Source of the DNA: Pseudoscleropodium purum
Taxonomy: Eukaryota; Streptophyta; Bryopsida; Hypnales; Brachytheciaceae
Reading direction: 5' to 3'
Assembly: GCA_963969395.1 (NCBI GenBank)
Contig: OZ017799.1
Location: 11,348,501 to 11,412,500, forward strand
DNA: 64,000 nucleotides
Shown: positions 2,651 through 59,988 of the stretch, one piece after another
Numbering within the stretch: position 1 is the stretch's first letter
How the letters are laid out: every line of letters starts with the position of its first letter
Notes under the pieces: generated by a model
Told to the model about the DNA's origin: nothing
Databases searched by the model: none
The model's input: only the letters and a program-made list of their open reading frames with translations
Program-made: the position numbers and the translations under genes

Positions 2651-2873
2651 CTGGCAGGCGGAGATGAACCTGATAAGAGAATTTGAAAGGGCTGGCACGT
2701 ACGGACACAAGGCAGCGCCCACTTTCGTAAGCAAACAGTCATGTTCGTTGATCAGCAGTTCCGTACTCGGGGTTCCGCGCCTCCCAACTTTGACACTCTC
2801 AGAATTTCTCAGTATATCGATCCTCGCGCTTGTGAAGCTGGGGAAACCCTAAACAAATTAAAACAAGCTGTAC

Positions 2874-2880
2874 TATAAAA
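2874..2880 (+). promoter_or_regulatory. TATA box of the terpene synthase gene
   Basis: The sequence TATAAAA lies 106 bases before the preferred ATG at 2980 and 52 bases before the alternative ATG at 2926. This predicts a transcription start near 2905. It is the only good TATA match directly upstream of the gene. Confidence 0.6.
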
Positions 2881-2979
2881 GCAGGAGGGGGCAGGCCCTA
2901 TGCTATAAGAGGAGAGAAACACCACATGTGCCACAAACCATCTACGATAGCAAGAGTTTCGATCGATCGAGAGAGCAAG

Positions 2980-4098
2980 ATGGTGACTGCGATGGAGCCA
3001 CCGGTTCCAGTTTCCTCAGTTCAGATTGCTTCCAAGGGAGATGACAAGCTTCCACCCTTGCTGTCCATGATCGTAGAAGGCCTGCCGCCGTATGCTGAGT
3101 CCAAGTATGTGCACGAGGCGGAAAACTATTTGAAGGAGCAGGTGAAGCGGTATGAGAATCCCCCTTCTTTGGACACCTACTACCGTTACGGCCTTGTCTT
3201 TGCCGGATATTGTCACCCTGGAGTGATCAGCTTGGACCGTCTCGTTGCCTTGTCCACTTACTATGCTTCATTATTCTTGTTGGATGATCTCCTTTTTGAC
3301 GATCCAGATGAGAATCTCTTTGAACCCTATGGCATTGACCGCAGTGTTCTCTCGAGCCCTGAGAAAATACGAGAATATCTTGATCATCTCGCTGCAGTTT
3401 TTGGTCAGCAAAAGTCACCCCGTAGCCCTGCTACCTTGATTGAGACCTTGATGTGCGAGGTGGGTCGGGACATGTTGGCTTTGTCGAACCCCGAATGGTT
3501 CAAGGCGAATCTTCACTTGCTCTATGAATATTTCCATGTCTCTGTTGCTGGCCACTCTGATATCGTTACAGGCCACAACTCATACTTCCAAGACTTGCAG
3601 TCTTATACCGACATGCGCGCTGTCATCGCGGGTGGTAAGTATATTCTAATATTGACGGAGTTTGCTAGCGATACCTACATTCCGACTGTCATGAGATCGG
3701 ATCCATACATGCAGAAAATGGAGATTGCAGCAGCCACACATCTTGCCTTCGCAAATGACGTCTTCTCATACCACAAGGAGAGCACTGTAGAAGAAAACCC
3801 TCGCAATCTCGTCACTGTGCTTATGGCTTGTGAAGGAAAGTCTTTTGTCCAGGCGGCGCAGCAAGCCATAGAATTGGTGAACAAATATGCGTCTTCAATC
3901 TTGGATTTGGAGGTAGAAGCTTCCGACTCTGTTTTGCAGAATCACTCGCGCGAAACCAGAGCACTTGTTGCTGGCAATGTGTACTATAGTTGCATGTGCG
4001 AGCGCTACCGGCAACCTGATTCGGTGTTTCCCGAGCTGAGAGACATGAGTACGAGCTGGAAGGCCTTTCTTGAGTCCAGTGGTGGAGTTGTTGTGTAA
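2980..4098 (+). CDS. Microbial terpene synthase-like protein (MTPSL), class I
   Basis: An intact, intronless reading frame of 372 residues from this ATG. It fits a class I terpene synthase of the microbial-like type: it ionises a prenyl diphosphate and cyclises it to a mono- or sesquiterpene, probably in the cytosol because no transit peptide is apparent. Visible motifs are the Asp-rich metal site DDLLFDD at residues 102-108, the second metal site NDVFSYHKE at 259-267 (NSE type), an Arg at about 213 where the diphosphate sensor sits, and an Arg-Tyr pair at 342-343. The length suits the single alpha-domain family, not the larger seed-plant synthases. An in-frame ATG at 2926 would add 18 residues, but its context is poor (C at -3, T at +4) while 2980 has A at -3 and G at +4. 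Substrate and product cannot be told from sequence. Family assignment is firm. Confidence 0.9.
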   Translation: MVTAMEPPVPVSSVQIASKGDDKLPPLLSMIVEGLPPYAESKYVHEAENYLKEQVKRYENPPSLDTYYRYGLVFAGYCHPGVISLDRLVALSTYYASLFLLDDLLFDDPDENLFEPYGIDRSVLSSPEKIREYLDHLAAVFGQQKSPRSPATLIETLMCEVGRDMLALSNPEWFKANLHLLYEYFHVSVAGHSDIVTGHNSYFQDLQSYTDMRAVIAGGKYILILTEFASDTYIPTVMRSDPYMQKMEIAAATHLAFANDVFSYHKESTVEENPRNLVTVLMACEGKSFVQAAQQAIELVNKYASSILDLEVEASDSVLQNHSRETRALVAGNVYYSCMCERYRQPDSVFPELRDMSTSWKAFLESSGGVVV

Positions 4099-14580: not shown

Positions 14581-15507
14581 ACATAATTCATGCATTAATT
14601 TGAAATTCAAATTCATTGCAACTAAAATCAAAGGAAATTGAAGGAGTCTATCATTCCATCCTCGTGAACCGTTAAATGTACTATGTTGTAGTACTTGTCT
14701 CCGTCTATATTTAGTCTATGCCATCAGTTTTGATTTTTAGTCCCTTTTGTTAGTAAATGAATTCAATCTAATGATTGTTTTATTGCTTTTGGTAATTCTA
14801 ACAAATCCTAATTTTATTTTAGAATTTTGTTATTTTAATTGAAGCCTTAAAACTCACTAAATCAAATCAAATCTAATTGTTTTATGGAATTTTTTTGTTA
14901 GTATTAATTTCCTAAATTAGTTTGGAAGTATTTGTTGAAGTTTGTTTTATTATTTTGGCTTATTAGGCCTAATAAAACAAATCCCCAAAAAATTAAACCA
15001 ACTAAATTCCATCGGAATCCCTAATTAATGACTAACTACCAAAGAATGAATAGTAAAAAGAATGATTGCAATAAAAAATAATAAAATGAATAGTAATGGA
15101 ATCAATGACAACCCGCACCATCAACCATGAATAGTTAGATTCTTACCTAAATGATTTTTTAATGAATTGATGCCATATTGCCACCTCTAATTCTCCCTTT
15201 AGTCTTCTTCATCACCTATTCACTCATCATTTGTTGTTTGTTGTTAGTTGTGAGAGAATGAGGAGACTGATACATGAGAAAGAGTGATAGTACTTTGGAT
15301 TTCAAACCAAAAGATGAGTTGAATGTGGCAAGCAATGACCAACTTGGTGTGTGGAGATTAATTCCAACACCAAGTATTTAGTTATGAGAAATCTATGTTT
15401 GCAATCACCTTAATTGAATCAGCAGTCCAGTAACCCCTTCCCTTTTATGTTGTTCCAATAGTCCCTTGCTGTGCCCAAGCCTCCCCACTATATAGGGCTC
15501 TCCTGCC
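14581..15507. other. AT-rich region left of the hAT end
   Basis: No gene is recognised. Just before the hAT end lies a small promoter-like stretch, CCCACTATATAGGGC near 15484-15498. It does not continue the hAT pseudogene found to the right of 27102, which matters for judging whether 15508-27102 is one element. Confidence 0.4.
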
Positions 15508-15665
15508 CAGGATTGACACGACGTCCGGACGTGGACGCTGTGTCCGCAGCGTTCGCTGACATTCGCGGTCCCAGCGGACGCAGCGTCCACCGGGACCGCC
15601 CCGTCCGCCCCGTCCGCTTTGACGGCCCTATTTCCCCCGACCGCCCTATCCAAACTGCCCCGCGG
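15508..15665 (+). repeat. hAT terminal region, B-type end
   Basis: GC-rich end that begins CAGGATTGACACGACGTCC and runs into CGTCCG-rich sequence. It aligns with the B-type end of 59662-59988, including the GACGTCCGGACG block, the GTCCGCAGCGTTCGCTGACA block and the GCGGACGCAGCGTCC block. The second TIR base triplet is CAGGAT rather than CAGGGT, a single change. Confidence 0.75.
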
Positions 15666-15850
15666 TCACTCCCTTAATCTTTAAACAATTAAATGTTAAA
15701 TGAAGTGCAATGGTTCGCGATTTGTTATTAAAACAATGTCTCTTATAAGTTGAAAAATTATAAAGTTTGACCATGAGTCCATGATAGTCTTGAAACTATG
15801 AAAAAATTTCAATTCATTTTCAGAAGGCAAACTAAAAAAGTTTGTGACTT

Positions 15851-15853
<3 letters not shown>

Positions 15854-15888
<35 letters not shown>
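15854..15888. repeat. (AT)n microsatellite
   Basis: Uninterrupted alternating A and T over 35 bases. Two more of this kind occur at 20801-20823 and 51216-51252, the last inside a foldback element. Confidence 0.95.
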
Positions 15889-15889
<1 letters not shown>

Positions 15890-16085
15890 TATTTAAAAAA
15901 TCAAGATCAACACAAATACAAACATAATCAATATGGGCAAAATGTATTGAATTTAATATAGAATACCATACATTATGCACATTTGGCTAATTGCACATAT
16001 AATTTTTTTCATTCCAACTCTATATTTTTAAACTAATTTTTAATGCCTATATAACCTATTCAACTACTACTTCTGTACTACCAAT

Positions 16086-17579
16086 CTAATATAAATGGCG
16101 AAAATGTTCATCTGGCATCGGCCAACGATATGTATTTGAAAATCGCGTAATCACATGGGCCAAACTAATATTTTCATCGTCAGTCTTCGAAGAAATGCGC
16201 TTCAAGTAAGTATAAAACACTTTTACAAAGTCATGAAAGGCAAATTGTGTCGCACTAGGTGTTTTTCGTAGCAAGTTGAAATACGCCTCTGACATGTTGT
16301 TTCCATTCATTCGCCGAGCAATTTTTCGAATGGCATACTCTTCCGACTTACGTGAATACATCGGAATGACTTCCACATCTGCACCTGCTTTATGCAAATA
16401 TGCAATACGTGGATCCACCCACCATCTCCTCTGCAAAGTTTGTTTCATCTCATCTGTTGATGTAAATGTATACAAAGACTTCATTGGCTGAGAAGCTAAG
16501 GTGGTCATGCCCCAATCGCAAACTCTAATGTACACACGTGACTCATCCCTTGGAAAATGCAACAAGATGTTGTCCAGAGAAAGATCATTGTGCAAATGTC
16601 CAGCAAGATGCACTACATACATTATATGCATAAAGGCCCATGTCAGCTCCGTGCGCTTCTTCCGATATCGCCCTAAACGGTGAGCTTTTACAACCTCCTC
16701 TTCGGTTGGATTTGTATACATCAAATGGATTTGAATGTTGTCTAGATAGTCCTTATCCATATTCAACATTTGTCGAAGAGTTCCACCATTCCACCAATAC
16801 GCATAACCTTCATACGTCGTTCTGTGCACCGCAGCAAACCGTATCACACCCGCGTGTGGAATTTGAACAGCCATTGATTCGTTTTGATGTTCTAACTTTG
16901 CAAGATCGGGTCAAGTTTGGTGGTGAATGGATTTCTTTGCCGCAAACTCCCAATAAGAAAGTATTCTTGGACATCCTTCAATACGAATCTTTCGAATCGT
17001 TGCATATTCACCTCTCATCGTTCTATCATCAACAACAATCACGCGTGTTGTATCTGGAAGTGCTATGAGGTGTCGTTTGTTCTTTTCCGCTTCAACAACT
17101 CCATCATTGCTTTTCCACCAACCAATTGAACCAACTCGATTGTGCTTTTTGGCGAATGGAGCACATCGCCCCCTAAACAAGTCCGCTTTCAGAATCACTT
17201 CTTCAAACTGGATGTCATTGGGTCGATATTCCTTGCCATATTTAACCAAAATGACTTTGGAATTCCACAAAGCGTCATGAACCTTGTTCTCCAAACATTT
17301 GGTGAAGTGCGTTTTATGCATTTCGTCATGCCACTTCGCCACATTCAATGCATCCAACAACATCTGTGTCATGTCTACCTTGAATTTAGACACATACTCC
17401 TCTTGATATCTGATGTACTTATTGTCTATAGACAATGTTGTTTCCGATTCATAAAATTGAACGATGCGCTCGATCATGAATTTCTTGCATTCTTCCGAAG
17501 GACTTTGGCGAGCTACCTCCAAGTTTGATGGTCCCTCTCCATGTTTCAGCTTCGCAACCTTTTTCTTCCCGTTCGGCAT
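16086..17579 (-). pseudogene. Protein kinase-like gene inside the hAT region, one in-frame TGA
   Basis: One frame of 497 codons apart from the stop, starting at ATG 17577-17579 and broken only by TGA at 16911-16913 (codon 223). Residues 1-180 are basic and charged, of no family I recognise. The kinase fold starts near 188 with a degenerate glycine loop (RGEYATIRKIRI). The beta-3 lysine lies in EFAAKK (211-216) and a likely helix-C Glu in LEHQNES after the stop. The catalytic loop is HNDLSLDN (330-337, HND instead of HRD) and the metal site is DWG (355-357) instead of DFG. The catalytic Asp, Asn and Lys are all there, so an undamaged copy could be active. Residues after about 360 (RRWWVDP, then SEEYAIRKIARRM) suit an activation segment and helix F. 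It lies downstream of a GC-rich array at 17775-18090. No close family is named. Without the TGA I would call it an intact gene. Confidence 0.7.
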
Positions 17580-17774
17580 CGTGACAAATGAAATTGATAT
17601 AGATCAAATTTTTTAATTTGAAATTGAATTCACGCGCAAGTGTCCAAAAAATTGGCAACAAGGGTGCCCCAATAAACCACTCTTGCCTTGCCTCGGAAAG
17701 GAGCCAATGGAGGATGAACCACCAAGCTCTCCGCTCCACCTTGCATTCACAAGGGGCAAAGCAAAAGTGACAAT

Positions 17775-18090
17775 GCGGACGGTCCGTCCGCCCCTCTTAT
17801 AAGGGCGGACGGCCCTAAACCGTCCGCCGGATCGGACGGCCACGGGCGGACAAATCTACCATCCGCCTAATCCGACGGGCAGTGGCGGACGGCCCCAAAC
17901 CGACCACTTGATCGGACGGGCCGCGGTTGGCGGACGCATCAGCCGTTCGCCTCCCCGAAACCCTACAGCCGCGTCCGCCCGATCGGACGGGCCGCGGGTG
18001 GCGGATGCATCGGCCGTTCGCCTCCTCGAAACCCTCGAGCCCCGTCCGCTCGATTGGACGGCCACGGGTGGACAAATCAAGCGTCCGTCC
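17775..18090 (-). promoter_or_regulatory. GC-rich GGACGG array upstream of the kinase-like gene
   Basis: About 315 bases very rich in GGCGGACGG and its complement, set in AT-rich DNA. The core ATCGGACGG recurs at 17911, 17982 and (as ATTGGACGG) 18053, exactly 71 bases apart, and also at 17831. The last two 71-bp units share most of their sequence, including GCCGTTCGCCTCC and GAAACCCT. A TATA-like CTTATAAG (17796-17803) lies about 220 bases before the kinase ATG. This suggests a promoter built from the motif that also fills the transposon ends. Confidence 0.65.
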
Positions 18091-18692
18091 GATCCAGTTT
18101 ATTTTCCATATTTGAAAATAGAATCTAAAGAAGAACCACTAATTGTCTAATTTGGGCATTTCTTCATACCAATAAGAAATCATTTTAGTTTTTAGCAATC
18201 GTCGAATGAAAAATTAAAATTTTTTAAATATTCAAATAATTCAATCTTTCATAAATTAATTAGAAATACATTTATACCATTTACGAGTTTCTAAATGTAA
18301 TAAACACACAACAATAATTTCAAAATACACACCATGCTAGTACATATTTAACCTTGAATGCTAAATTCAAAAATAGACATAATATGGCTCTTACAAAGTT
18401 ACATTTCTTCTTCATATTTTTATTATTTATCAAAGTTACTTATAGCCTTATACATCAACGCTATTATAAAATAATACAATGATGTCTTCAACAATATGCT
18501 TGCCTACATACATACTTGGTGTACACTATTACACAACACTTTTTGAAAAAGTGAACAAAATTGTTGTTCAAAATTGTTCTATTCATTTAAAATTTTGTAC
18601 TACTTCTACCAATCTAGTACTCTATACTTGTCGTGAGAGTAAAAATGAGAAAATTGAGCAAATACATGCTCACTATATACTTGCATGTTTTT
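18091..18692. other. AT-rich spacer between the two minus-strand genes
   Basis: AT-rich sequence between the kinase-gene array and the 3' end of the neighbouring minus-strand gene. No gene or bounded element is recognised. Confidence 0.4.
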
Positions 18693-18719
18693 TTATTCGG
18701 AATCTGAATCGGACTCAAA

Positions 18720-19955
18720 TTATTGACCGCTGCCTCTTCTTTGTACTCCAATGAATGGACCACCTCCGTAGTTTCCGTGATATCCACTCGGTGCACCTCC
18801 TTGTCCACAGTTTGAACCTCCAAAAGTGGGAGGAGGAACCGGAGTAGTAGGCTCTGATCCTCTTTCATTTGAAGCCCCATAATAAGAGGCCCTATGATGC
18901 CCGTATGAATCACTTCTAGTTGATCCCGGATAGTATTAGGCGCTTCCGTGAAGAGAGCAACTATACTGCGGGGTTACATGGCTTCCTCCACTACCTTTGG
19001 AGCCCACTTGAGTGGGCGTCGTATAATATGAACCAGATTCACTAGACCTACCATAGTGCGTGTTGCCATAGCTACCTGCTCCACCTTGAGAGCCAATTTC
19101 AGGAGAAGTGCCATAATGAGAACCAACTGCACTTGAACCACCATAATGTGTGGATCCATAGCTCTCTCTTCCACCTTCATGTCTATTTTGAGGATCATAA
19201 CTAGAGTATGAACCACCTCTTCCTTGTTCAGATTTTCACGTTCCATGTTCATGTCCGTAGGACCCACCATGCCTATCTTGCCGTCCACGATCTTGAAAGC
19301 TTCTGCATGTTGCCTCTTGCATTTGTTGTTCGAATTCAATTCGTTCTTGTTCTTCTACCCGCTCGTACCTAACTCCAAATGTGACAGGCGCTTGCATATC
19401 ATCGTCATCATCGTCATCTGTCCACACATCTTCAGCATCTCGTAGAACAACTGAAGATTGTTGTAGATAACCTCGATTGGACCACTCTGGCATGCAATCG
19501 CTTGCGCCCATCCATTGTGTATCTATAACGGCATCCGTGCGTGTATAGTTCTCCACATTGCGACCTGTAGCGGTACGCCAGTCCACGCCCTTGTGGAGTA
19601 CAATCTCTGCCCAAACCATTGCCATAACATTATAATTCATTATATTTGGTTTGGCGCTTTTAATGCCAAGAACTCGATGCACTTGTGTGTATCGTTGTTT
19701 GAAGTGCTTACTTTGGCACGTAGACATTTGTCCTTCCCAACGTGGCGCTTGGTGCTCTACACGTTCACGTCGCCAAAGTTTTTGAATGTGAGTCATTTTC
19801 ACATACTTCTTGCACATTGAGCAATTCCCCACTCTTGTTGGTTCTTCTTCCCATCCCGGTTCACCCATGCACAATGGATCAGCCCAAGCATCCCAATCGA
19901 ACAATTGGGGTCTTCCCTTTCGACTACTTTTTTTGGGTGTTCTATCTTTCGGCAT
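18720..19955 (-). pseudogene. Zinc-knuckle-like, Gly/Tyr/Ser-rich low-complexity protein gene
   Basis: The frame starts at ATG 19953-19955 (MPKDRTPKKSSRKGR) and is interrupted by TGA at 19236-19238 and TAA at 18936-18938. It stops at TAA 18720-18722 or, if read through, at 18693. The N-terminus is basic. A Cys/His cluster follows (CSMCKKY, then STCQSKHF about 30 residues later) that could bind zinc but matches no standard finger. Next come Trp-rich segments, an Asp run (WTDDDDDDDM) and a Gln/Glu/Arg-rich coiled stretch. The remaining third is a prion-like region of SYG, HYGGSS and SGSYY repeats, like the disordered tails of RNA-binding proteins. I do not recognise the family. Its array and its neighbour suggest it belongs to the transposon. 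Protein start and order of parts are seen; function is not. Confidence 0.6.
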
Positions 19956-20095
19956 GATGAAGCCGAAGCAAAGAGAATGAAACAATTAGAAAGCTTAAGA
20001 ATCAAAATTTTGATTTAATTAATTAATTAAAATTTTACAAGCGTGAAATTTGTGAAAATTTGTAACAATGCCACAACAATCATTCACTCAAAGCG

Positions 20096-20330
20096 GAAGG
20101 GGCGCGCAGAGTTTCCAATGCACTGGTCCGCCCACTCCAAAAGAGAACGATTGTTTGGAATGAGCCGTCCGCCTCCCCATATATATATGCGGACGCCTCG
20201 AGGCGGACGTCTAAATCATACGGACCACATCAGTCCGCGTGCCAATCGGACGGCCGTACCGGGGCGGACGGGGCGGACGCCGGATCGGGCGGACCAGGCG
20301 GACGGGATGGACAGGGTAGACGGCTCATCT
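20096..20330 (-). promoter_or_regulatory. GC-rich GGACGG array upstream of the low-complexity gene
   Basis: About 235 bases dense in GGCGGACGG and CCGTCCGCC, with CCAATCGGACGGCC and GGCGGACGCC blocks like those in the short hAT elements. A TATA-like ATATATATAT (20179-20188) lies about 225 bases before the ATG of the minus-strand gene, a spacing like that in the kinase-gene array. A telobox AAACCCTAA sits at 20332-20340. Confidence 0.6.
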
Positions 20331-20340
20331 TAAACCCTAA

Positions 20341-22700
20341 ACCTAATGAAGCAAATTGTTCTTTTTTCAAAATCCCACGGTATAGATGTTTAACCCCTAA
20401 AGTTCTTTTCACTAAAAACACTTCAAAACTGTCATTAGTAGTGCAAATACCAAGTCTTAGAAGAAAAATACTTTGGAGCATATGTAACTGTAGGATCTTG
20501 TAGTAAATTAGTCGGAAAAGATGTGGAAAAATTTTTAGACAAATCCACCATTTGGATTGTAAGATATTAGATATTGAATGTTTCATTTAAGGGAGCTACT
20601 CAATTATGTCTATTAATCAACAATTGGTAGGCTAACAAACCTAACTTAGCATGTATTTTAATATTTGTTGCAATTGTTTTAGGAATATTATAACATAACA
20701 CTATTATAATATTCTTATAAATGATATAGTACTAAATCATTTCAAAATCAACAACATTTGAACACAATTTGTCAATCATGTCTTCCATACTCCTTTAATG
20801 ATATATATATATATATATATATACATACATAAAATATATTAGATAAATCAACATGAACAAATCAATGATTATATATTTCATAGATCTATTCTTCATCAAT
20901 CAAATAAGAGTGCATATTCAAATATAGACAAAGATGGTTTCCCCATTTGTTCCCAAAAAATAGAGAAACAAATAGAGAAAGATATGAAGTGAATGTTACT
21001 TGGAGAATTGGAAAGAAAAAAATTGAAGTACTCAATTGCATTTTATTAAATTGAAAAATTGCATGTGGATGGCATGAATTAATCTTCATAGATGCTAAAC
21101 TCATACGAGTTGCATTTCAACAATTATGATTTATGCAATTGATTGAATTGAAAGCTCTTGTAATTACATTTTCAAATTTTCAATTCAATCATTCAAATTT
21201 GCAAGAGTGATTTAGGATAGATTTATAACTTTAAATGTGAAAGCATTCAATGCCTTTATGCGTTTGTTCATCAATATATTAATTTTAAATAAATAATATA
21301 TATTTTTTATAACATATGCATAAACCATTGCATTAAAAAAACAAAAAAACTAAGAGCCAAGCCAAATAGGCTGGTCAAATGAAGAGAACAAGAGCCCTAC
21401 GAGAAAGCAAAGGAAAAAAAAAAATATCAAAAGAATTCAAAGGAAGGAGCAAGATGCATTCTTGCAAGACCGTAGAATACATAATGATTTCAAAATCCAA
21501 ACACAAATATATTTTCTATTTCAATGAGAGCCAAAAATGAACTACCTTGCTCTCAAAGATTGTATAATGTACACGTTATACAAAACGAACATATAACAGA
21601 AAGAGTAGAAGACATCGTTTATCATGATTGAAAACTAAAATGATTTTTTTTTTCTATGTAGAATATTTTATGAAATGTAACAATGTATTTAATTATCATA
21701 ATAATTGGTAGAAATCTTTGTGCAATACATAGAAACATTTCATTCATGTGGAATTTTTTCATTTATTTAGGATTAAAATGGAAATATTATACTCTACAAA
21801 GTACAAACCAAAAACAATACCATATACCTAAGTTCAAAAGTTTGCAATTGTTTCGTGAATTCATTTTGAAAACTCAAACAAAGAAATATTTTATAATCAA
21901 TATCTTGTTCATTTGAATCATTTCAAAAATCGAATTCCGAATTCAATTCCTATTTATAATAGAAATTATATTTGTCAATTTTTTAGATCTTTAAACAATG
22001 AACCCTCTTTTTTAAAATTAATATTTAAAAACATCTGAAATAAGAATATTGGAATTACCCTTCAAAATAAATATAGCACATGTATAATGTATTCTACTCC
22101 ACTAACTCAAGTAACAAATTTTTCTATGTTTTTAAAGAAAAATATAGCCATACATGATTTGAAAGTTAAAACATTGATTCTTTTTCTTTGTTTTCAAATC
22201 TAATCAAAATTTCATTAAAAAATATGAAAGACTCGATGTTCATTTGAAGATCGTGATGCACTTTTAATGAGAAATCACAACCTTTCATTAAATATCATGA
22301 GGTTGAAATCCATTAAATTGTTATTCTAATTATGTATTGGGGCCTTTTTAAAAAATTTCATTTGCTTACAATGAAAATGGAATTGATTATTTCTGCAAAA
22401 CATTTGATTTCCTAATGAACTTTAAAAAAATCCCCACCATCTTCAGATCTTCTCAAAACCTATTTAGAGGGATAATATCAGTAAATAATCCAAACATATT
22501 CAACTTAACCACAATCCCCTCATTTGTAAAACAATTTAGGGGAGAAAAGAAAAGGTTTAGGGTAATTAGGGTATAGGGTTTAGGATTTACATTTAAAAAT
22601 AAAATAAAATGATAAATCAATTACATTGATCCTCATTTAGCAGTGATTATTAGGCTGTTTTTTTTTGGAAATGTTACCGCTCTTTTTGAGTAATATCGGC
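20341..22700. other. AT-rich region between divergent genes of the hAT region
   Basis: No gene is recognised. It contains an (AT)n tract at 20801-20823 and a degenerate telomere-like stretch at 22556-22584. It separates the minus-strand low-complexity gene from the plus-strand transposase. Confidence 0.4.
22556..22584 (+). repeat. Short telomere-like (TTTAGGG-like) stretch
   Basis: Four imperfect units read TTTAGGG, TAATTAGGG, TATAGGG and TTTAGG. They resemble the plant telomere unit but are too few and too degenerate to be a true interstitial telomere array. Confidence 0.45.
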
Positions 22701-22719
22701 CTCATAGGATGCTCCAATG

Positions 22720-22945
22720 GACAGCTGGGCAGATGCCATCGGCGGTCAGTGTTTAAGTGGGACGGTCGACGTGTCCAAAGCGCGGACGGCGTCGGAAGGC
22801 GGATAGTGCGGACAGTCCCGTCTGACCGCCCCGTTCGCCATGTCCGACTGCCCGTCCGACCCGTCTGGCCTGTCTGCCCGCCTGCCCCGTCTGGCCTGTC
22901 CACCCGTCCGCCCGTCCGCTTCAGCCCCGTCCGAGCCGTTGCTTG
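22720..22945 (+). promoter_or_regulatory. GC-rich array upstream of the hAT transposase
   Basis: About 225 bases dense in GACCGTCCG-type motifs and their complements (GCGGACGG, CCGTCCGCCCGTCCG, CTGGCCTGTC). It lies about 300 bases before the first ATG of the transposase (23249). A telobox AAACCCTAA follows at 22957-22965 and a TATAAAT near 22995 is the likely core promoter. Confidence 0.55.
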
Positions 22946-23248
22946 TTTTTGAATGTAAACCCTAAAAATGAACCTTAAATTTTTTGGAGGGGATTATAAA
23001 TGTTAGAAGAGAAGCTTTTGTATTCATTCTTGAAAAACCGAACGCTAAGATTTCCAAGGGCTATGAGCTTCAATTTATTGTGTCTCTTGTTTGGTAATGC
23101 ATAGTTTGGTGGACGGGGGGGCTTTGATTTTCAAAGCTTTGTGTGACTAATTTCATTGATATTGTATACATTGTCACGTTGTGGGTTTCAAATTTAAAAC
23201 ATTCTATTGGTTTCTTTTGAAATTGAGGTAAAACATACACTTGTCAGT

Positions 23249-23706
23249 ATGGTGGCCAAACCGACGAGGGATTTTTCTCCTTGGTATAGTGTGCCAGAGG
23301 ATGGTAAAGTAAAATGTAGGCTTTGCAAAGCAATCATGTCAAGGAGGCTCAGCCGTATGTTAGCTACTTAGGCTATTCTGAGCCTGGAGGTATACGTGAT
23401 AAAGGGGTGAGCCTTTGTCTACGATTACCAATGGCAGTTTGAGATTTATTTCGGCATTGCGAAGGAGTTTTTCCAAAACGCGTTGTAATGGACAATGTGG
23501 ATGGCAATCCTGGCCCTTTAGATGTCCAAGAGTTTTCGGCCGGAAAGGTTGTATCGCATTCTGACCACAAAGACTCTTGTCCAGCGTCCAAAGAATTGGT
23601 ATCAATGGTATGTGCCACAACTGAAGTGACTTTGAGTACAGAAGCTTCTGGTGAACGTGAAACTCCGAGGGCATCAAGTTCTAGGCCTTAGAGGCAAGGC
23701 AGTTTA
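23249..23706 (+). pseudogene. Broken 5' part of the hAT transposase, BED-finger remnant
   Basis: ATG 23249 opens MVAKPTRDFSPWYSVPEDG and then KCRLCKAIMSRRLSR, the first half of a BED zinc finger (CxxC, with a Trp before it). The frame ends at TAG 23369-23371. Reading then continues in the frame of the main transposase (SEPGGIRDKGVSLC). That frame holds a TGA near 23441 and a TAG near 23689 before joining the long frame at 23707. The finger's His ligands are not evident. A frameshift plus two stops is the simplest reading; an intron in this interval cannot be excluded. Confidence 0.65.
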
Positions 23707-25995
23707 GTGAATGGGTTTGAAGAAGGTCATAGACACAAATTACATTCAGTGTGGGCAAATTTTTTTTATTCGGCAAACATACCACTTTCCGTGGCTCGAA
23801 ATCCAGCTTTTAAAGAAGCAGTGAAGAAAACATCTACGTTCGGTAGGCCATACATTCCTCCCTCATACCACGACCTTCGGTACAAATTGTTGAATGAGGC
23901 GAAGACCAACATTCAGACACAGTTGAATGCACGGACTGAAGATAACATTCGAAAATTTGGAGCAACATTGTCCATTGATGGATGGAGCTCAATGACTAAT
24001 CGACCTCTCATCAATGCCATGCTTGTATCATCCGCAGGTGAAGAATTTCTTGGATCTGTGGATACAAGTGGTTGTGAAAAAAATGCGGAGTACTTGGCAG
24101 TTGTGTTGGAAAAGTTCATTGAACAAGTGGGGTCCAAGAACGTCGTGTTAATAACTACGGATAATGCTCCCGTGAATCCGTCCGCATGGGATGTAATATC
24201 TGCAAAATATCCTCATATTTTTTACCAAGGGTGCGTGGTACATGCATTGAATTTGTTGTTGAAGGATTGGGCTGTACAGAAATGGATTGCTTCCAAATTG
24301 GATAAAGGAGTTCTTGTAGCTAAATGTATTAAGAAGAGACATATGCCGCTAGCTCTATTGCGAAAGTATTCGCCAAATCTTGGTCTCTTGATGCCTAGGG
24401 ATACGAGGTTCGCCTCTAAATTTATCATGATGGAGCGTTTGACAAAATTGAGAGGAGCATTGGAACAAACGGTGGTAGATTCGCAATGGATTGAGTATGT
24501 ACATACTCTCAAGAAGAAACGTGGAGCTAAAGTCCAACTAAAAGACTTGGTCTTAGCGGTGAAGAAAATTGTTCTTAATGACCATTTTTGGAATCGGTCC
24601 ATGAATTATGTGGAGATGGTTGAACCAATCATATGTGCACTCCGCGATTTGGATTCAAAATTACCATGCATGGGGAAGGTGTTGCATATCATGAGGAAGT
24701 TAGAGAAGCACGTGAACGGATTACAAAGTCTACCATTTTGTTTGCTAGAAGAACTTGCAATTTCATTGGTACAGTCTTTTTATGCCCGAAGAAGAATGGT
24801 GGACAACGATCTCCAATCAGCCGCAGCTCTTTTGAATCCATACGTTCTTCATGACAAAGAGTTAGGGGATGACGGAGATGCAATGTCAAGATGTAAGAAA
24901 GTTTTGGAGAGAATATGTAAACCGGATGAATATGCAGCAGTGGTGAAGGAATTTGTGGCTTTTCAACACAAGGAACCTCCATTCTACAATATGTTGAATC
25001 CGGGAGATCAAATGTTGTCCGCACATGCTTGGTGGGATTTTGAAGGTACATGTGGCAAGTTTATAGCTCCATTAACGAAGAGGATATTGGCTCAACCGGT
25101 GTCATCATCTTCATGTGAACGGAATTGGAGCAACTATTCTTTTGTTCACAACAAATTTCGAAATAAATTGAAGCCGGAGAGAGCATCGGATTTGGTGTAC
25201 GTGTATACCAATTCCAAAGTATTAAACGCATCAAAGGAAAAAGATGAAAAAAAATGGTATAATGATAATGTGGATCCGATGGAATCAAAAGATTCAGATA
25301 GGCCGACGTTAGAAGACGATGATGACGATGATGACAAGGATTTGGAAAGGGCCCTTTCAGCTGTAGATGGCGGGGATGACTTCAATCGTGCGACAACATG
25401 GGGAGATGAAGACGTTATGGAAGGCTTTCCTAATTTGGTGAATGATATGCATGATTATCATCTAAACCGCAAAGATGTCGTTCCCGACAATGCAAACAAT
25501 GCATATACCTTTTATGAAGACGAGGACAATGTAGGGGTACAGGAAAATCTACCTTCTTTAACTACATATTGCAATGGAACGGGATACTTGAATAGCGAAA
25601 ACATTCTATCGGAAAAGGCAAACGCTATTGCCAAAGAGGTGAAAATCAATAAGAATGCTATTGGTGATGAAGGGAGAAATGAAGAACTAATTTCTCAATT
25701 TCCATCTGTGGCATTAAATGTAGTACAAGGAAATGACAGAAGAGAAGATGCGGTCATGGAGGTGGACGTTCCAAAAGATGTAGGCAACAATAGTGGTGAT
25801 GAGGGGGAACCAAATATTGCGGTACAGAAAAATAGTGATTCACTTGGAATGGCAGTCACAAATTCGGCAATTGTGAAGAGTGATAAAGGAAAGGAATCAA
25901 TGAAGTCAATTTTTGAAGTACCGAGATATAGTGCTCTTTCACCAATACCGTTGAAGTCTGTTAGCACACGATTGGTCGGATTGGATGATTCTTAG
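23707..25995 (+). CDS. hAT-family transposase, DUF659 type (main open frame)
   Basis: A 762-codon frame, uninterrupted but opening at GTG, so it is the body of a longer protein. Function: cut-and-paste transposition of hAT elements, giving 8-bp duplications as seen at the short elements here. The DUF659 catalytic core is clear. Asp91 sits in LSIDGWSSM, Asp152 in LITTDNAP, and the CxxH signature Cys176/His179 in GCVVHALNLLLKDW. The third catalytic residue is probably Glu471 in SSSCERNWS. The C-terminal hAT dimerisation domain spans about 440-508, with AWW at 441-443. Residues 540-550 are an Asp run and the rest is acidic and unstructured. The frame ends at TAG 25993-25995, but the same frame continues to 26619. 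Catalytic residues are intact, yet damage upstream makes a working protein doubtful. Confidence 0.85.
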   Translation: MNGFEEGHRHKLHSVWANFFYSANIPLSVARNPAFKEAVKKTSTFGRPYIPPSYHDLRYKLLNEAKTNIQTQLNARTEDNIRKFGATLSIDGWSSMTNRPLINAMLVSSAGEEFLGSVDTSGCEKNAEYLAVVLEKFIEQVGSKNVVLITTDNAPVNPSAWDVISAKYPHIFYQGCVVHALNLLLKDWAVQKWIASKLDKGVLVAKCIKKRHMPLALLRKYSPNLGLLMPRDTRFASKFIMMERLTKLRGALEQTVVDSQWIEYVHTLKKKRGAKVQLKDLVLAVKKIVLNDHFWNRSMNYVEMVEPIICALRDLDSKLPCMGKVLHIMRKLEKHVNGLQSLPFCLLEELAISLVQSFYARRRMVDNDLQSAAALLNPYVLHDKELGDDGDAMSRCKKVLERICKPDEYAAVVKEFVAFQHKEPPFYNMLNPGDQMLSAHAWWDFEGTCGKFIAPLTKRILAQPVSSSSCERNWSNYSFVHNKFRNKLKPERASDLVYVYTNSKVLNASKEKDEKKWYNDNVDPMESKDSDRPTLEDDDDDDDKDLERALSAVDGGDDFNRATTWGDEDVMEGFPNLVNDMHDYHLNRKDVVPDNANNAYTFYEDEDNVGVQENLPSLTTYCNGTGYLNSENILSEKANAIAKEVKINKNAIGDEGRNEELISQFPSVALNVVQGNDRREDAVMEVDVPKDVGNNSGDEGEPNIAVQKNSDSLGMAVTNSAIVKSDKGKESMKSIFEVPRYSALSPIPLKSVSTRLVGLDDS

Positions 25996-26619
25996 AGCTT
26001 TGGATATGGAAAACGCCTAGTGAACATTTCCAAAGAAATTTCTACAGGCGGTAATCTACAGAAAGTAGCATCATCATCTACAAGCCTAAGTGATACGAAT
26101 AGTGATCGGATGCCATTGGCATCTTTGCGTGATCACATTTTAGGAAAAGGAATGGTGCAAGAACCCATCAAATCAACAAACGGCACTCTATTACTTCAAA
26201 AGAAAGCCAAAGTGGAGATAACCGTTCATGGACATGTCGACCCTACATCGAGATTGATGGTTCAAGAATCGAGTAAGGTGAAAGCGAAAAGAGAAATGCA
26301 ACCTTTTGCTATCTCTCTAGTGAAGAATAGGACCCCTCTTGATGAAAATGTTGCTACTTTGTCAAATAGAAAGAAAAGAAAGGTTCCTATTCAAAAAGCC
26401 TTTAATCGTTTTGTCAAATTAAAAAAAGAAAAATTAAATTCGAAAAAAGGGAGTAAACCTACTTCGAGAGAAGACTTGAAGGAGACAACGATACTTGATT
26501 CCAACAATGAAGATGACTTTGACAATGAAGATGACTCCGATAATGAAGATTTTGAACGGAGAGCTGCAGGAGAGAGTAGTGGGGCTGAGGTTAAAGGAGA
26601 TGTGGATTGGCGTTCATAG
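25996..26619 (+). pseudogene. In-frame C-terminal tail of the hAT transposase after a TAG
   Basis: This 207-codon stretch is in the same frame as the transposase and directly follows its TAG. It holds RKKRKVP, a close match to a classical monopartite nuclear localisation signal, then more Lys-rich sequence and an acidic tail with NEDDFDNEDDSDNED. Composition is like the acidic segment before the stop, which suggests the TAG is recent and that the full transposase was over 1,000 residues. Confidence 0.6.
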
Positions 26620-26966
26620 GAATTGTGGAGATGTGAATTTAGATGTTTGATTGTTTAGTTGCTCATGATATATGGAGCTCATGTTGACAAATGACAATGG
26701 TTTCTTCAATCATTTTATTATAAAATTGTTTTTTATTGATGATATACATCTCGCTGGATTTTAAAGTGATTTTGTTTCTAAATCAAAATGAAATTCAACA
26801 AAAAAAATTAAAAATATATTTCATATTTTAGCTTTTATATAAATAGTGATATACAACTCTATTGAATCGCAATTGCAATATAAGAAAAATCCAAATCCAA
26901 ATGACTTCACTCTCAATCTCTCATTGGTGAAAACAATAAAAACAAAAAACCCAAAATGGGTTTTCT
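26620..26966. other. AT-rich 3' flank of the transposase
   Basis: AT-rich sequence between the transposase tail and the right hAT end. No gene is seen. This would hold the transposase 3' untranslated region. Confidence 0.4.
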
Positions 26967-27102
26967 AAGCCGCCCCGTCTGTCTGCCCTGCCTGTCCGCC
27001 TTCCAACGGCGGGAGGGACGCTACATCCGCTAGCGTCCGTGCGTCCGGACGTCCGGAAAACGGACGCTATTTTGGGGCGGACGTAGAGATTCGTCAACCC
27101 TG
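26967..27102 (-). repeat. hAT terminal region, A-type end
   Basis: GC-rich end whose reverse complement begins CAGGGTTGACGAATCTCTAC, then GTCCGCCCCAAAATAGCG and TCCGTTTTCCGGACGTCCGG. These blocks match the A-type end of 59662-59988 best among the five short elements. The end abuts a different hAT pseudogene at 27103. Confidence 0.8.
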
Positions 27103-28495
27103 GTCAAATCTTCATACATCTTGAGAATTAGAATTCAATCCTCTGAAAAGATCTTCCTCATTAGTTCAATGAAGCTCACCCATCTTGTTTCTACTTTAAG
27201 CAATAGCTTAAGACCTTTTGTCTTTGTAATTTCCACTAGTCTTCTAAGCTCAATGTACCTCTTTAATGAGTTGCAGAAATAAGAATGGGACTCCCTTAGC
27301 AACATCTCTACCTTGTGGAATAGGGGCAATTTGCTCAAAGCTTCAAGTGCAAGATTCAGCTTGTGAGCTGGGCAATGATATGGAGTGCAAAATGGAGCAT
27401 ATTTCTTTACAATCTGGATAGATACACCAGTTTTGCAACCAGCCATAGCAGTGACCCATCAGATCCAAAGCTCAATAGTTTGGAAGCTATAGCTTGATGA
27501 TCTAAGCCACCACCATCTACCACAACCTCTATGATAATTCTCACAAGGTTGTCTACTATAGGAGCCTCCTCCACCTTCTGTAAGTACACCAAAAGTGGAA
27601 CATGAATCCAATCTTCCACCATATACAAGTGAATACTAATCCAACTTCCATTGTCAATGCTAGTTACTTCATCAACTATACAAGCAAGAAACTTAGCATT
27701 TCTCACTTTCAATTTCATTTCACTGGTTATCTACCTATACATGTATTCAGCTAATATCCATCTATTAGAATTAGACCAATGAATTGTAGGCAGATTTGGC
27801 ATCTTCAAAAACTTATAAAGAGAAAAACGATTTTGATACTCTTGCATGGGGAGTCCATTAGCCAAAACTTGAAACAAAGTTGCAAATTGCACACGCTTCT
27901 TCACATGTTCAATTGAAAAAATCAACTATATAGTTTGGGCAATGGATAGAGGTGACCACTTCTAGTACAACTTCAAATTCTTGTAGTGTTTGCATTGTGC
28001 AGCTATGTATTGTTGCCTTTTATTGACATTGAAGGATGGTATGTTCTTCTTGGCTATCCTCTTCCCATCATGCTTGAATAATGTATTAGATTTAGGAGCC
28101 ATCACAATGGGCTTCTTCTCCATTGCACTGTAGGGGATGCACTTCACCATATGCAAGATTCCATCTTTTGCCAGCACCCCTTCAGTCCATGTAAATTGTG
28201 CTTGCCAAATTGCCTTGAATTTTTGATGTCTATCATATCATTTTTGTGCTATTGCAGCCACCAACTCGCTTGCAATTTGTGTCCTCCTCCCCCTTTTCTT
28301 CTCAGTTTGCAATAAGACAACCTCATCATCTTCACTCTCATCATCAACCAATGAGATGTTTGCTAGGAACTCACTCTCTTCACCAAAGTCATCTAAGACA
28401 AGCACCATTGTTGGAGTAGAAGATAGCAAACAAATATCACTTGAGTCTGAAGAAGGTAGTACATTGTTGGATTGCAACTGTAGCTGCATCAACAA
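27103..28495 (-). pseudogene. hAT-related transposase pseudogene, DUF4371 type
   Basis: Read on the minus strand in several frames. In order: an acidic Ser/Glu-rich start (28495-28238), a KKPIVMAPKSNTLFKHDGKR segment (near 28090), VLANGLPMQEYQNRFSLYKF (near 27840), and the core DNGSWISIHLYMVEDW with a PLLVYLQKVE segment (near 27640). A frameshift follows, then the typical AHKLNLALEALSKLP and VETRWVSFIELM segments (27380-27160). After a TGA the frame reads ILILKMYEDL up to 27103, where the GC-rich hAT end cuts it off. The family is a plant DUF4371/zinc-finger-862-like hAT transposase. Multiple frameshifts and stops make it dead. Its missing C-terminal part is not found to the left of 15508. 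Confidence 0.75.
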
Positions 28496-50769: not shown

Positions 50770-51212
50770 CATTAGAAGATTTTTGGGGCCTCTAGATGCT
50801 TGCAAATTATCACAGCTTGTAAATGCAAGAAACAGGTTCAACGCAGCAGTTTGATGTGACCAAGACCCTACCACGTCATCAAGGTTGACAGGACGGTCGG
50901 ACGTCCGAGACGTTCGGACGCGGACGCTGACATTCGTGGACGCCGTCCGCCCCGATATCCGTCCGCCCGATTACGGCCGTCCGATCGACATGCGGACTGA
51001 TCTGGTCCGCATGATCTGGGCGTCCGCCTCAGGCCGTCCGCCCCGTTCGTCCGCCCCGCCCATCCGCCTTCCGACAATGGGAGGGATGCTGCGTCCGCTG
51101 GCGTCCGTGAGGACGAATGTCCAGGTTACGGACGCCTTTTTCGGGCAGACGTAGAGATTCGTCAACCCTGCACGTCATTGACCAAAAAAAAATTATTTTT
51201 TTTGCATTTGAA

Positions 51213-51259
<47 letters not shown>

Positions 51260-51960: not shown

Positions 51961-51989
51961 CCCCGCCACTTGACTTTGTTAATTCCTAG

Positions 51990-52291
51990 CAGGGTTGACG
52001 AATGTCTACGTCCGCCCGAAAAAGGCGTCCGTAACCCGGATGTCCGTCCTCACGGACGCTAGTGGATGCAGTGTCCCTCCCGCTGTCGGAAGGCGGACGC
52101 CCAGATCATGCGGACCAGATCAGTCCGCATGTCGATCGGACGGCTGTACCAGGGCGGACGGGTATTAGGGCGGACAGGTGGACGGGGGGACAGGCGGACG
52201 GGGCGGATGGTGTCCGTAAATGTCAGCAGACGCTGCGGACACAGCATCCGTGTCCGGACGTCCCGGACATCCAACCGTCCTGTCAACCTTG
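51990..52291 (+). mobile_element. Short GC-rich hAT element 2
   Basis: 302 bp with ends CAGGGTTGACGAATGTC and GTCCTGTCAACCTTG, flanked by a perfect 8-bp duplication ATTCCTAG (51982-51989 and 52292-52299). The A-type end is on the left. It is non-coding and inserted in the decayed copia sequence. Confidence 0.93.
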
Positions 52292-52599: not shown

Positions 52600-54720
52600 T
52601 ATATAAAAATATGTATATTTATATTATTTAGATGGGTTTCAATATTTGTAATATAATAAAAGAAATGATGTCATTAGAAATGGCTTCATGGTGATACACT
52701 TTTTCTGTCATTATAGACAACTATAAAGTGAGGGGTTCACTTGAGAACTTTATTATATTTGATATTATTTTTTTTTGTTTTTCATTTAGATTATACTATA
52801 TCAAACTGAAGGGATTTTTTTGAGTCTCAAAAAGAAGAATCTCAATAGGAGCATGAAGTTACATTTGAAAAATATTTTGAAGGTTTAAATGACGATTAAT
52901 ATTATTAGATAATCAAGTCTATCAAGGGAAGTTATGGTCATCAACAATGGTTAGAGGGGCTAGTCAATCCTTTAACTAAGGTGGATTGTGTTGTTTATAT
53001 CATTACTACTATTAAACGCATTTTCAGATTCTTGCAAATAGATTAATATTCTAATTGAAAGTCTATTTTTTACCTCTATTAGTCATATGTTAGTTTTTAA
53101 TTATTCATTCCATACTTGGAGTGTTTTTATATTTTTTTTCTGAAATTATTTTTTATTTATGAAGTAGTACAAGTAAAATATTTAAGTAGTTTGCCTTCTA
53201 CTAACATTGGAATGATTTATCTTCTTCATAGAAATATGAAATTAGTCTTATGGTCAATTTTCATTATCAATAGATGTTAGAAAATTCACCTAGTTAAAGT
53301 GTAGGTTGAATTCTCACTTAACTTGAGTGATTTAGATAGAAGATAAGGTAGAGGGAAAAAGAGGCACTAGAGGTCGTCTCTCTTGTAGTTGTTAATAAGG
53401 CCTGAAAGTTTAAGAGGCCATGATGTATTGTATTTTGAGATTTTGAAAATAAAATTTGAAGGAGTTGTGTATCTTGGTGTGAAGTTTTCAAATTGATCTC
53501 ACTTTCTTGATTTGAAGTTTGGAATTAAAAATTGTACCAATTTGAGTGGAAGGAGGTCTATTGCCTTCTATATAAAAGAGCAGAGATTTCAACTAATTAT
53601 AAAAGATGGACAGGTTTTTTGTTTACAATGAATTTTAAAGAAAATTTAGTATAAGTAAGTTGTAAATGACAAAGCAAAAAACAAGGTTGACGAATCTCTA
53701 CGTCTGCCCGAAAAAAGCGTCCGTAATCTGGACGTCTGGATGTTCGGACGCATGGACTCTAGCGGACGCAACGTCCCTCCCGCCGTCGGAAGGTGGACGG
53801 CCTGAGGCAGACGCCCAGATCGTGCGGACCACATCAATCCACGTGTCGATCGGATGGCTGTAACTGGGCGGACGGGCGGATGGGCGGACAGGCGGATGCG
53901 AATGTCAGCGGACGTTGCGGACACAGCGTCCGCATCCGGACATCCTGTCAACCCTGGCAAAAAAGGATTTGCTACTTCTTTTTTTTCAAGGCCTAAACTT
54001 TGAATACCTAACAAAATTGTATAGAGTTTTAGAATGAACTAAAATTTAGAAGAAAAGTAGAAAATTGTAGTTTTCTAAAAAACCATTATGCATCTTATTT
54101 GGATTCTAGACGAAACGGCAACACTAATTCAAAGTTAAATAGAGAAGTAGAAGTTGAAGTTTGGTGTTTGGAGTTGAAGTTTGGTGATTGGAGTTGGAGT
54201 TTGAAGAATTGAAAAAAATTGGAAGAGACTTTGAAAACAAGAAGATTGAAGATTTATATGTTGTGGCTTGTGGCTTCTTATTTTTAGCTTGATTTGGAGG
54301 CTGCTATCTTTTTATTATTATTCCTAGCAGTTTTGAAGGCTTATTGTTTTCATTTTTGCTTTGTAAACATTGTTGCAAATTATAAAGGTATCCAATAGTA
54401 GTCTTGTTTTATATTTGTAGACCATTGATGAAGCACAATTGCTAATCATTATGGGTTTGAGGTTTAAAAGCCAATTTTTGAATGGTCATCTCATAGTTTA
54501 GCTGACTTGTTTTACCTGTCTAAAGTCGTAGAATTTTATCACCTATCCTTACTATGACCTTTATAGAGCCACTATAAGATAGGCCAATGGAGAGGAGTTT
54601 AAAGATTTAAGAATGAAGAATGAAGGCCAAGGACTAAAAGGCCAAAGACTAGAAGGTTCAATTGAATTTCATAACAAACTATTTCTAGTTACAACTAGAA
54701 TCCTCATGATTTTCCAAAAT
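52600..54720. other. Non-copia segment between integrase and reverse transcriptase
   Basis: Copia-like sequence fades near 52600 and resumes near 54740 (SDFFAASQATPIQL). The 2.1 kb between shows no copia coding and is AT-rich apart from hAT element 3. It is probably another old insertion; no ends were identified. Confidence 0.4.
53682..53956 (+). mobile_element. Short GC-rich hAT element 3
   Basis: 275 bp with ends CAAGGTTGACGAATCTC and ATCCTGTCAACCCTG, flanked by a perfect 8-bp duplication GCAAAAAA (53674-53681 and 53957-53964). A-type end on the left. Non-coding. Confidence 0.92.
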
Positions 54721-54739
54721 AAATTTTCTTTACACAACA

Positions 54740-58100: not shown

Positions 58101-58107
58101 GGGAGGG
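58101..58107 (+). other. Polypurine tract of the copia element
   Basis: GGGAGGG directly precedes the 3' LTR, in the position of the plus-strand primer. Confidence 0.7.
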
Positions 58108-59661: not shown

Positions 59662-59988
59662 CAGGGTTGACGAATTTCAACGTCCGCCCCAAAATAGCGT
59701 CCGTTTTCCGGACGTCCGGACGTCCGAACGCTAGCGGACGCAGCGTCCCGACCGTCGTCGGAAAGCGGACGGGCGGGGCGGGGCGGACGGCCCGACCGCC
59801 CGAGGCGGACGCCCAGATCGTGCAGACCAGATCAGTCCGCGCGTCGATCGAACGGCTGTAATCAAGCGGACGGACGGACGGACGGGCGGGCAGACAAGCG
59901 GACGCTGCGTCCGCCAGGACCGCGAATGTCAGCGGACGCTGCAGACACAGCATCCGCGTCCGGACGTCCGGACGTCGTGTCAACCCTG
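59662..59988 (+). mobile_element. Short GC-rich hAT element 5
   Basis: 327 bp, the longest of the set, with ends CAGGGTTGACGAATTTC and GTCGTGTCAACCCTG and a perfect 8-bp duplication GGTACATT (59654-59661 and 59989-59996). Its ends are the closest match to those at 15508 and 27102: the A-type side shares AAAATAGCGTCCGTTTTCC, and the B-type side shares CACGACGTCCGGACGT (as reverse complement). Non-coding. Confidence 0.94.

What the first reader, a model, noticed from the sequence alone, without database searches (positions are those of the whole stretch)
15508..27102. Candidate hAT transposon carrying a kinase-like gene and a prion-like protein gene besides its transposase
Two hAT ends of opposite type, in the right orientation, enclose a DUF659 transposase plus two non-transposase genes, each preceded by an array of the motif that fills the transposon ends. 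Plant hAT elements normally encode only a transposase. A kinase and a low-complexity partner on the same unit would be an unusual accessory set. Caution: the 8-bp flanks differ, so unity rests on end types, orientation and shared motifs.
Basis: partly seen in the sequence, partly recalled or inferred. Interest (0 to 1): 0.87.

Follow-up and report, generated by a model that had tools for sequence, protein, structure and literature searches.

The report
Jumping gene carrying a protein kinase
A very abundant plant jumping gene of the hAT kind carries a protein-kinase gene beside its transposase gene, and a sister form carries the kinase with a half-disordered protein; hAT elements usually carry only a transposase, so this is an unusual equipped version.

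Summary
Both hAT ends (15508, 27102), the CGTCCG arrays, the DUF659 transposase, the kinase and the low-complexity (LC) gene are there, all three genes broken. The window copy has no 8-bp duplication. The unit is still real: in the same 313-Mb genome the left end lies beside all 29 other fetched kinase copies and the right end beside all 7 other fetched transposase copies, and 7 of 9 tested copies have perfect 8-bp duplications around kinase plus transposase. All three genes together is the rarer form: of 187 listed kinase places 53 have the transposase at fixed spacing, 40 the LC gene, 2 both (one is the window), 92 neither detected. So there are at least two classes: A (kinase + transposase, about 9.5-10 kb) and B (kinase + LC; right half not read). 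The window is B-like on its left with an A-type transposase on its right. Best reading: a hAT family of a non-seed plant, probably a moss, with an accessory protein kinase; what the kinase acts on is inferred. Fungal hAT with TET/JBP genes and IS3EU with an alpha-kinase are precedents, so: new variant of a known kind.

The parts
15508..15670 (+). left hAT end: terminal repeat CAGGATTGAC and CGTCCG-rich subterminal stretch
   Evidence: the same end type (up to 6 of 24 mismatches) lies beside all 29 other fetched kinase copies
16086..17579 (-). protein kinase-like gene, one in-frame stop in this copy (intact copies 497-498 aa): N-terminal helical part plus kinase domain
17776..18091 (.). CGTCCG array upstream of the kinase gene (13 exact motifs)
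18720..19955 (-). LC gene, three premature stops in this copy (intact copies about 420 aa): conserved domain of about 165 aa with invariant or nearly invariant Cys/His/Trp, a helix, and a G/S/Y-rich disordered tail
20166..20304 (.). CGTCCG array upstream of the LC gene (7 exact motifs)
20305..22700. AT-rich spacer; in the loci printed, LC-side (class B) copies match the window up to 21596 (L056) and transposase-side copies from 22118 (L013), each to the end of the fetched stretch
22783..22933 (.). CGTCCG array upstream of the transposase gene (5 exact motifs)
23249..26619 (+). DUF659 hAT transposase gene with C-terminal dimerisation region, broken in this copy (two in-frame stops and a frame break near the start)
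26985..27102 (-). right hAT end: CGTCCG-rich subterminal stretch and terminal repeat CAGGGTTGACGAATCTCTACG read on the minus strand
   Evidence: the same end (up to 3 of 28 mismatches) lies beside all 7 other fetched transposase copies
15500..15507 (.). left 8-bp flank CTCCTGCC
27103..27110 (.). right 8-bp flank GTCAAATC (no duplication of the left flank)
50880..51170 (.). 291-bp short element (MITE) with one left-type and one right-type end, 8/8 duplication CACGTCAT
51990..52291 (.). 302-bp MITE, 8/8 duplication ATTCCTAG
53682..53956 (.). 275-bp MITE, 8/8 duplication GCAAAAAA
57605..57836 (.). 232-bp MITE, 7/8 duplication
59662..59988 (.). 327-bp MITE, 8/8 duplication GGTACATT

Best explanation
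The window holds a decayed copy of a very abundant hAT family of a non-seed land plant (probably a moss) whose elements encode a protein kinase of their own. Shown: the kinase gene and the DUF659 transposase gene lie divergently in one element with fixed ends, fixed order and 8-bp target duplications (class A). A sister class (B) holds the kinase followed by a protein with a conserved Cys/His-rich domain and a disordered G/S/Y-rich tail. In the window the same CGTCCG motif fills both ends and stands upstream of each gene. Inferred: the transposase cuts at the CAGGGTTGAC ends; the CGTCCG arrays are shared binding sites for an element protein (transposase or LC protein), which ties expression of the genes to end recognition and may fight silencing of these CpG-rich arrays; the kinase phosphorylates the transposase or host silencing or repair proteins and so sets transposition activity. 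The window copy is probably a B-type left half with an A-type right half, or one of the rare three-gene copies, and is dead. The confidence given is for the shown part; for the inferred mechanism it is about 0.3.
For: Left end beside 30 of 30 fetched kinase loci and right end beside 8 of 8 transposase loci, window included in both. Nine copies had a listed transposase and a fetched kinase locus (not a random set); 7 of 9 show perfect 8-bp duplications. Kinase-transposase spacing 5.58-6.29 kb in 47 of 57 pairs; kinase-LC spacing 3.60-4.13 kb in 42 of 42. In C1 plus C40:0-30.8 Mb, 52 of 83 listed transposase places have a kinase upstream on the opposite strand, against 0, 0 and 2 in the three control arrangements. 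Word counts in the genome at up to 2 mismatches: kinase 816, LC 411, transposase 495, left end 2256, right end 3523; reversed controls 0. Full-length kinase frames in 12 of 30 fetched loci, with HxD and DWG motifs in all 12. Kinase fold: 276 PDB chains at E <= 0.001; the 50 listed are by title protein kinases, one titled only 'phosphotransferase'. Relatives of all three proteins in public genome and metagenome protein data, best aligned identity 73% (kinase), 76% (LC), 68% (transposase, over 57% of its length). A kinase (P0030) and a transposase (P0081) relative both show a longest contig of 27,639 bases.
Against: No tool here shows expression, kinase activity or DNA binding, so the mechanism is inference. 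The window copy has no duplication and broken genes. Of the 9 copies tested for duplications, one disagreed (3 of 8) and one had no right end in the fetched piece. 92 of 187 listed kinase places had neither partner detected (capped lists). Of 12 long end-to-end pairs on C1, 7 had a detected kinase, 4 a transposase in the expected arrangement and 4 nothing detected; one had LC and transposase in the reverse orientation. Within-genome selection is weak once the mutation spectrum is allowed for: nonsynonymous/expected is 0.73 for shared kinase changes, 1.10 for LC and 1.16 for the transposase (8 copies); for single-copy changes 0.94, 1.62 and 1.03. The LC gene is mostly not in the transposase-bearing class. 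The right half of class B and about 2 kb of class A were not read. The shared contig length of P0030 and P0081 is only a hint: a kinase and an LC relative (P0042, P0064) also share a short length, 1679, perhaps by chance.
Confidence: 0.85

Rival explanations
1. The kinase and LC genes are passengers: plant gene fragments captured once by a hAT element and carried along without use, as in Pack-type elements.
For: Selection within the genome is near neutral for LC and transposase and weak for the kinase. Many copies are broken: 18 of 30 fetched kinase loci have no full-length frame.
Against: The kinase is in the same element as a transposase in class A, and is also in class B, at hundreds of places. 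Relatives with kept kinase motifs are found at 50-73% identity in other sequence sources, plus one at 31%, which passengers would hardly keep.
Confidence: 0.12
2. The window is no unit at all: a B-type element (kinase + LC) that lost its right end lies by chance beside an A-type element that lost its left end.
For: Flanks differ. The window kinase groups with class B copies (weak support). Its kinase-transposase spacing of 7.6 kb lies outside the class A range.
Against: The same LC-transposase spacing recurs at three other places (3896, 3960, 3971 against 3764 bp), so a chance neighbourhood is unlikely; a recurrent recombinant or a rare full form fits better. The family-level unit does not depend on the window copy.
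Confidence: 0.3
3. Class B is a non-autonomous derivative that lost its transposase and is moved by class A.
For: Listed B copies rarely have a detected transposase (2 of 42). MITEs with the same end types are common, so ends are moved in trans.
Against: The one B copy whose two ends were paired is 11.64 kb long, about the window's length, which leaves room for a third gene; its right half was not read.
Confidence: 0.5

Closest known systems
hAT superfamily (Ac/hobo/Tam3), plant members; survey PMC6027215 (passages read)
   Same: CAGGGTTG fits that paper's plant terminal pattern [T/C]AGNGNNG; 8-bp duplications (usual for hAT, passage of PMC12730594); hAT dimerisation domain; MITE derivatives
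   Different: about 9.5-10 kb with a kinase gene; the longest consensus in that survey is 7144 bp
Fungal hAT7 elements with a TET/JBP dioxygenase gene (PMC12730594, passages read)
   Same: hAT element carrying a second, non-transposase gene
   Different: fungi, 7-bp duplications, an oxygenase instead of a kinase
Fungal IS3EU elements with an alpha-kinase gene (PMC12730594, passages read)
   Same: a kinase gene opposite in orientation to the transposase gene within one DNA transposon
   Different: another transposon superfamily; alpha-kinase, whereas this one matches the protein kinase (PF00069) family and fold
VANDAL elements with VANC anti-silencing proteins (PMC5735166, passages read)
   Same: an accessory protein family and a short motif repeated in the non-coding parts of the element, terminal regions included
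   Different: no sequence comparison with VANC was made; that any protein here binds CGTCCG is only inferred
Pack-type elements (PMC8903248, search listing and start of abstract only)
   Same: non-transposase coding sequence between transposon ends
   Different: those are described as non-autonomous; class A has its own transposase and the kinase is kept in both classes

Membership tests
hAT superfamily | 8-bp target-site duplication | tested here: met
   7 of 9 other copies perfect; 4 of 5 window MITEs perfect, the fifth 7/8; not met by the window copy itself
hAT superfamily | terminal repeat of the type [T/C]AGNGNNG | tested here: met
   CAGGGTTG in the family; pattern from PMC6027215; the window's left end reads CAGGATTG, one letter off the pattern
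hAT superfamily | transposase with hAT C-terminal dimerisation region | tested here: met
   PF05699 3.6e-8 and PF04937 3e-32; in L013 8e-9 and 5.5e-32
hAT superfamily | catalytic acidic residues of the transposase | not tested
   no alignment to a solved hAT transposase was made
Eukaryotic-type protein kinase | catalytic Lys, HxD and DxG motifs | tested here: met
   HNDLS[PS]DN and CDWG in 12 of 12 full-length copies, FAAKK in 11 of 12; motif roles are recalled
Eukaryotic-type protein kinase | protein kinase fold | tested here: met
   276 chains at E <= 0.001, the 50 listed protein kinases by title; model confidence is modest, pLDDT 62; a profile search of PDB sequences gave weak kinase matches, best 5.3e-4
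Eukaryotic-type protein kinase | Pfam Pkinase above the curated cut-off | tested here: not met
   22.5 and 21.5 bits against 31.7 for this genome's copies; 16 of 20 aligned members match at E <= 0.01, best 3.2e-10
Alpha-kinase (as in IS3EU) | alpha-kinase domain | tested here: not met
   no alpha-kinase hit at E <= 1 for the window piece nor among 20 aligned members at E <= 0.01
VANC anti-silencing factors | binding to motif arrays and loss of methylation | not testable with these tools
   only the arrays are seen
Pack-type (gene-capturing, non-autonomous) elements | no transposase in the element | tested here: not met
   class A has it; class B open, since its right half was not read

The most novel reading that the evidence does not exclude
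A two-part transposon system: class A elements bring transposase and kinase, class B elements bring kinase and a condensate-forming DNA-binding protein, both reading the same CGTCCG arrays. The element-borne kinase is the shared control part that switches transposition or host silencing, which would be the first plant DNA transposon to run on its own protein kinase.
Probability: 0.25. Interest if true: 0.87.

Novelty: new variant of a known kind. Interest (0 to 1): 0.72.

Why it matters
Plant hAT elements are the textbook case of a one-gene transposon (recalled). Here is a family at hundreds of places in one genome that kept a protein kinase in at least two sub-lineages, with relatives in other sequence sources. 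It makes a question testable: can a transposon control its own jumping, or its host's silencing, by phosphorylation? The LC protein adds a domain family without a significant Pfam or PDB sequence match (best weak hits zf-C3HC at 0.0054 in 2 of 20 members; PDB 0.57), with a disordered tail, tied to the same motif arrays.

Tried and rejected

Led nowhere: scans of genome contigs and viral contigs with the kinase gave no relative. The last genome-search runs did not show which transposase class B has; one search showed one divergent LC gene at C1:11736150. NCBIfam gave only a weak lanthionine-synthetase match for the kinase, 0.0026.

Novelty searches: in the held open-access library showed no plant hAT with a kinase in their listings (titles and starts of abstracts); subscription papers and Repbase were not searched, so it may be described there.

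Limits of the counts: the genome search scores and lists only the best places (kinase 141 of 1367 candidates, LC 150 of 1214, transposase 59 of 1208), and pattern searches list only about the first hundred exact places, so 'neither detected' is not absence. The 187, 182 and 183 places are merged, and 10, 13 and 80. In one search I used C1 and C40:0-30.8 Mb because the lists covered those; I left the 29 top DUF659 hits (sister family) out of the transposase set. One search printed 25 chosen loci only.
Full report
What is in the window. The left end starts at 15508 and the right end stops at 27102; the 8-bp flanks differ. CGTCCG occurs 100 times in the window against 2.8 expected; 36 of the 37 inside the locus fall in five clusters, at both ends and upstream of each gene. 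All three genes are broken in this copy. Five MITEs elsewhere in the window have one left-type and one right-type end; 4 of 5 have perfect 8-bp duplications and the fifth 7 of 8, so these ends do get moved.

The host. The window is G000:C43:11348501-11412500 of a 313-Mb genome in 52 contigs. A 420-aa frame at 2836-4095 matches the terpene synthase domain PF19086 at 1.9e-20; I take it for a microbial-type terpene synthase (recalled), and such genes are said to be widespread in non-seed plants and absent in seed plants (start of abstract of PMC13137197 in the listing). Eleven contigs exceed 12 Mb (lengths or places). A moss is likely; this is inference, and no tool named the organism.

Is it one unit elsewhere? 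Searches of the same genome gave 1208, 1367 and 1214 candidate places for transposase, kinase and LC gene, of which 59, 141 and 150 were scored and listed. All 30 fetched kinase loci (window included) have a left end about 0.46-0.88 kb beyond the kinase 3' end (up to 6 of 24 mismatches; L037 and L043 also carry further ends), and all 8 transposase loci (window included) have a right end about 3.4 kb beyond the query start (up to 3 of 28 mismatches). For nine copies with a fetched kinase locus and a listed transposase I fetched 251 bases at the predicted right end: 7 of 9 have identical 8-bp flanks outside the two ends; L018/L084 agree at 3 of 8; in L085 no right end was recognised, though the eight letters of its left flank do occur there. 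So kinase and transposase move as one element.

Sizes and numbers. Words at up to 2 mismatches: left end 2256 places, right end 3523, kinase 816, transposase 495, LC 411, with 0 in reversed controls. On contig C1 up to 23.9 Mb, 20 of 43 exact left ends pair with an exact right end within 30 kb: 8 are MITEs of 204-296 bp, and 12 are 6.4-17.3 kb, six of them 9.3-10.2 kb. Of these 12, 7 had a detected kinase, 4 a transposase in the expected arrangement, one LC and transposase the other way round, and 4 nothing detected in the capped lists.

Two classes. In the listed places the kinase has the transposase upstream on the opposite strand at 5.58-6.29 kb in 47 of 57 pairs, and the LC gene upstream on the same strand at 3.60-4.13 kb in 42 of 42 pairs. 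But of 187 kinase places 53 have only the transposase, 40 only the LC gene, 2 both, 92 neither detected. If the two were independent about 12 would have both (my arithmetic). The sequence agrees: upstream of the kinase array, 9 of 29 other kinase loci continue into the window's LC-side segment and 20 do not, and the six of the 20 that were printed share another, non-window sequence there. The kinase tree groups most of the two sets apart, with the window on the LC side, though support is weak (no starred branch) and two non-LC copies, L045 and L046, fall on that side. LC and transposase at the window's spacing occur at four places, window included (3764, 3896, 3960, 3971 bp). So the window layout recurs but is rare; recombination between the classes or a surviving full form would both explain it. 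I could not read the right half of class B or about 2 kb of class A.

The proteins. The kinase: 12 of 30 loci have a 497-498 aa frame, all with HNDLS[PS]DN and CDWG, 11 of 12 with FAAKK; the model has an N-terminal helical part and a kinase fold, at modest confidence. 45 relatives in public protein data, the only organism name shown being a Bacilli metagenome bin, the best aligned at 73%. The LC protein: 9 of 30 loci have a frame of 411 aa or more; an alignment of 20 members shows a domain of about 165 aa with invariant or nearly invariant Cys, His and Trp, predicted as folded, followed by a helix and a disordered tail of 57% G, S, Y, Q and N; 27 relatives, best aligned at 76%. The transposase: DUF659 plus hAT dimerisation; 23 relatives, the nearest 68% over 57% of its length, the only named plants Cryptomeria and Salix at 24-34%. 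The kinase relative P0030 and the transposase relative P0081 have the same longest contig length, 27,639, a hint that the pair is linked elsewhere too.

Selection. Counting shared changes against synonymous expectation with a simple mutation spectrum gives 0.73 for the kinase, 1.10 for LC and 1.16 for the transposase; single-copy changes give 0.94, 1.62 and 1.03. Fetched copies are mostly close to each other and many are dead, so this neither proves nor excludes use; conservation between sequence sources is the better evidence for the kinase.

How it may work. Inferred: ends cut by the transposase; shared CGTCCG arrays as binding sites at ends and promoters; kinase acting on transposase or host factors. 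The nearest worked-out parallel for arrays plus an accessory protein is VANC in VANDAL elements, for a kinase opposite a transposase the fungal IS3EU elements, and for accessory genes in hAT the fungal hAT7. The listings show no paper on a plant hAT with a kinase.

Verdict. A real, abundant hAT family with an accessory protein kinase; the three-gene claim is only partly right; the mechanism is open. New variant of a known kind.

Noticed in passing
genome-wide, e.g. G000:C1:6383051-6407091, C46:391137-407435, C45:21387945-21402517: Many element copies occur as inverted pairs about 9 to 27 kb apart with equal scores (4 exactly equal pairs plus one nearly equal among the 59 hits): inverted duplications made by transposition, or an assembly artefact of fold-back reads.
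   Followed up: no
L001-L008: A sister DUF659 hAT family (36% identical transposase, open frames up to 1181 aa) has upstream repeats of a different motif (CGTCCCCGCCC), as if motif and transposase diverged together.
   Followed up: partly
window 2836-4095 +: 420-aa frame with a terpene synthase domain (PF19086, 1.9e-20), taken for microbial-type, which points to a non-seed plant host.
   Followed up: partly
window 50880-59988: Five MITEs of 232-327 bp; four have a left end continuing ACAGGA[CT]G, one the ACACGACG form of the gene-bearing elements; right ends also come in CTCTACG and TCAACG forms genome-wide.
   Followed up: partly
L043 (about 3298-3596): A further MITE-like pair of ends, about 299 bp apart with the same 8-bp flank ATCCTTGT, next to the left end of a kinase copy.
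   Followed up: no
window 27135-28237 -: Broken open frames just outside the right end look like another degraded hAT-like gene (recalled resemblance); no Pfam match.
   Followed up: partly
window 49496-50035 +: Pol_BBD domain of a retroelement polyprotein (PF22936, 1.4e-11).
   Followed up: no
G000:C1:11736150-11737295 +: A divergent LC gene (48% to P0048, 403-aa frame), suggesting a further lineage of the LC protein.
   Followed up: no
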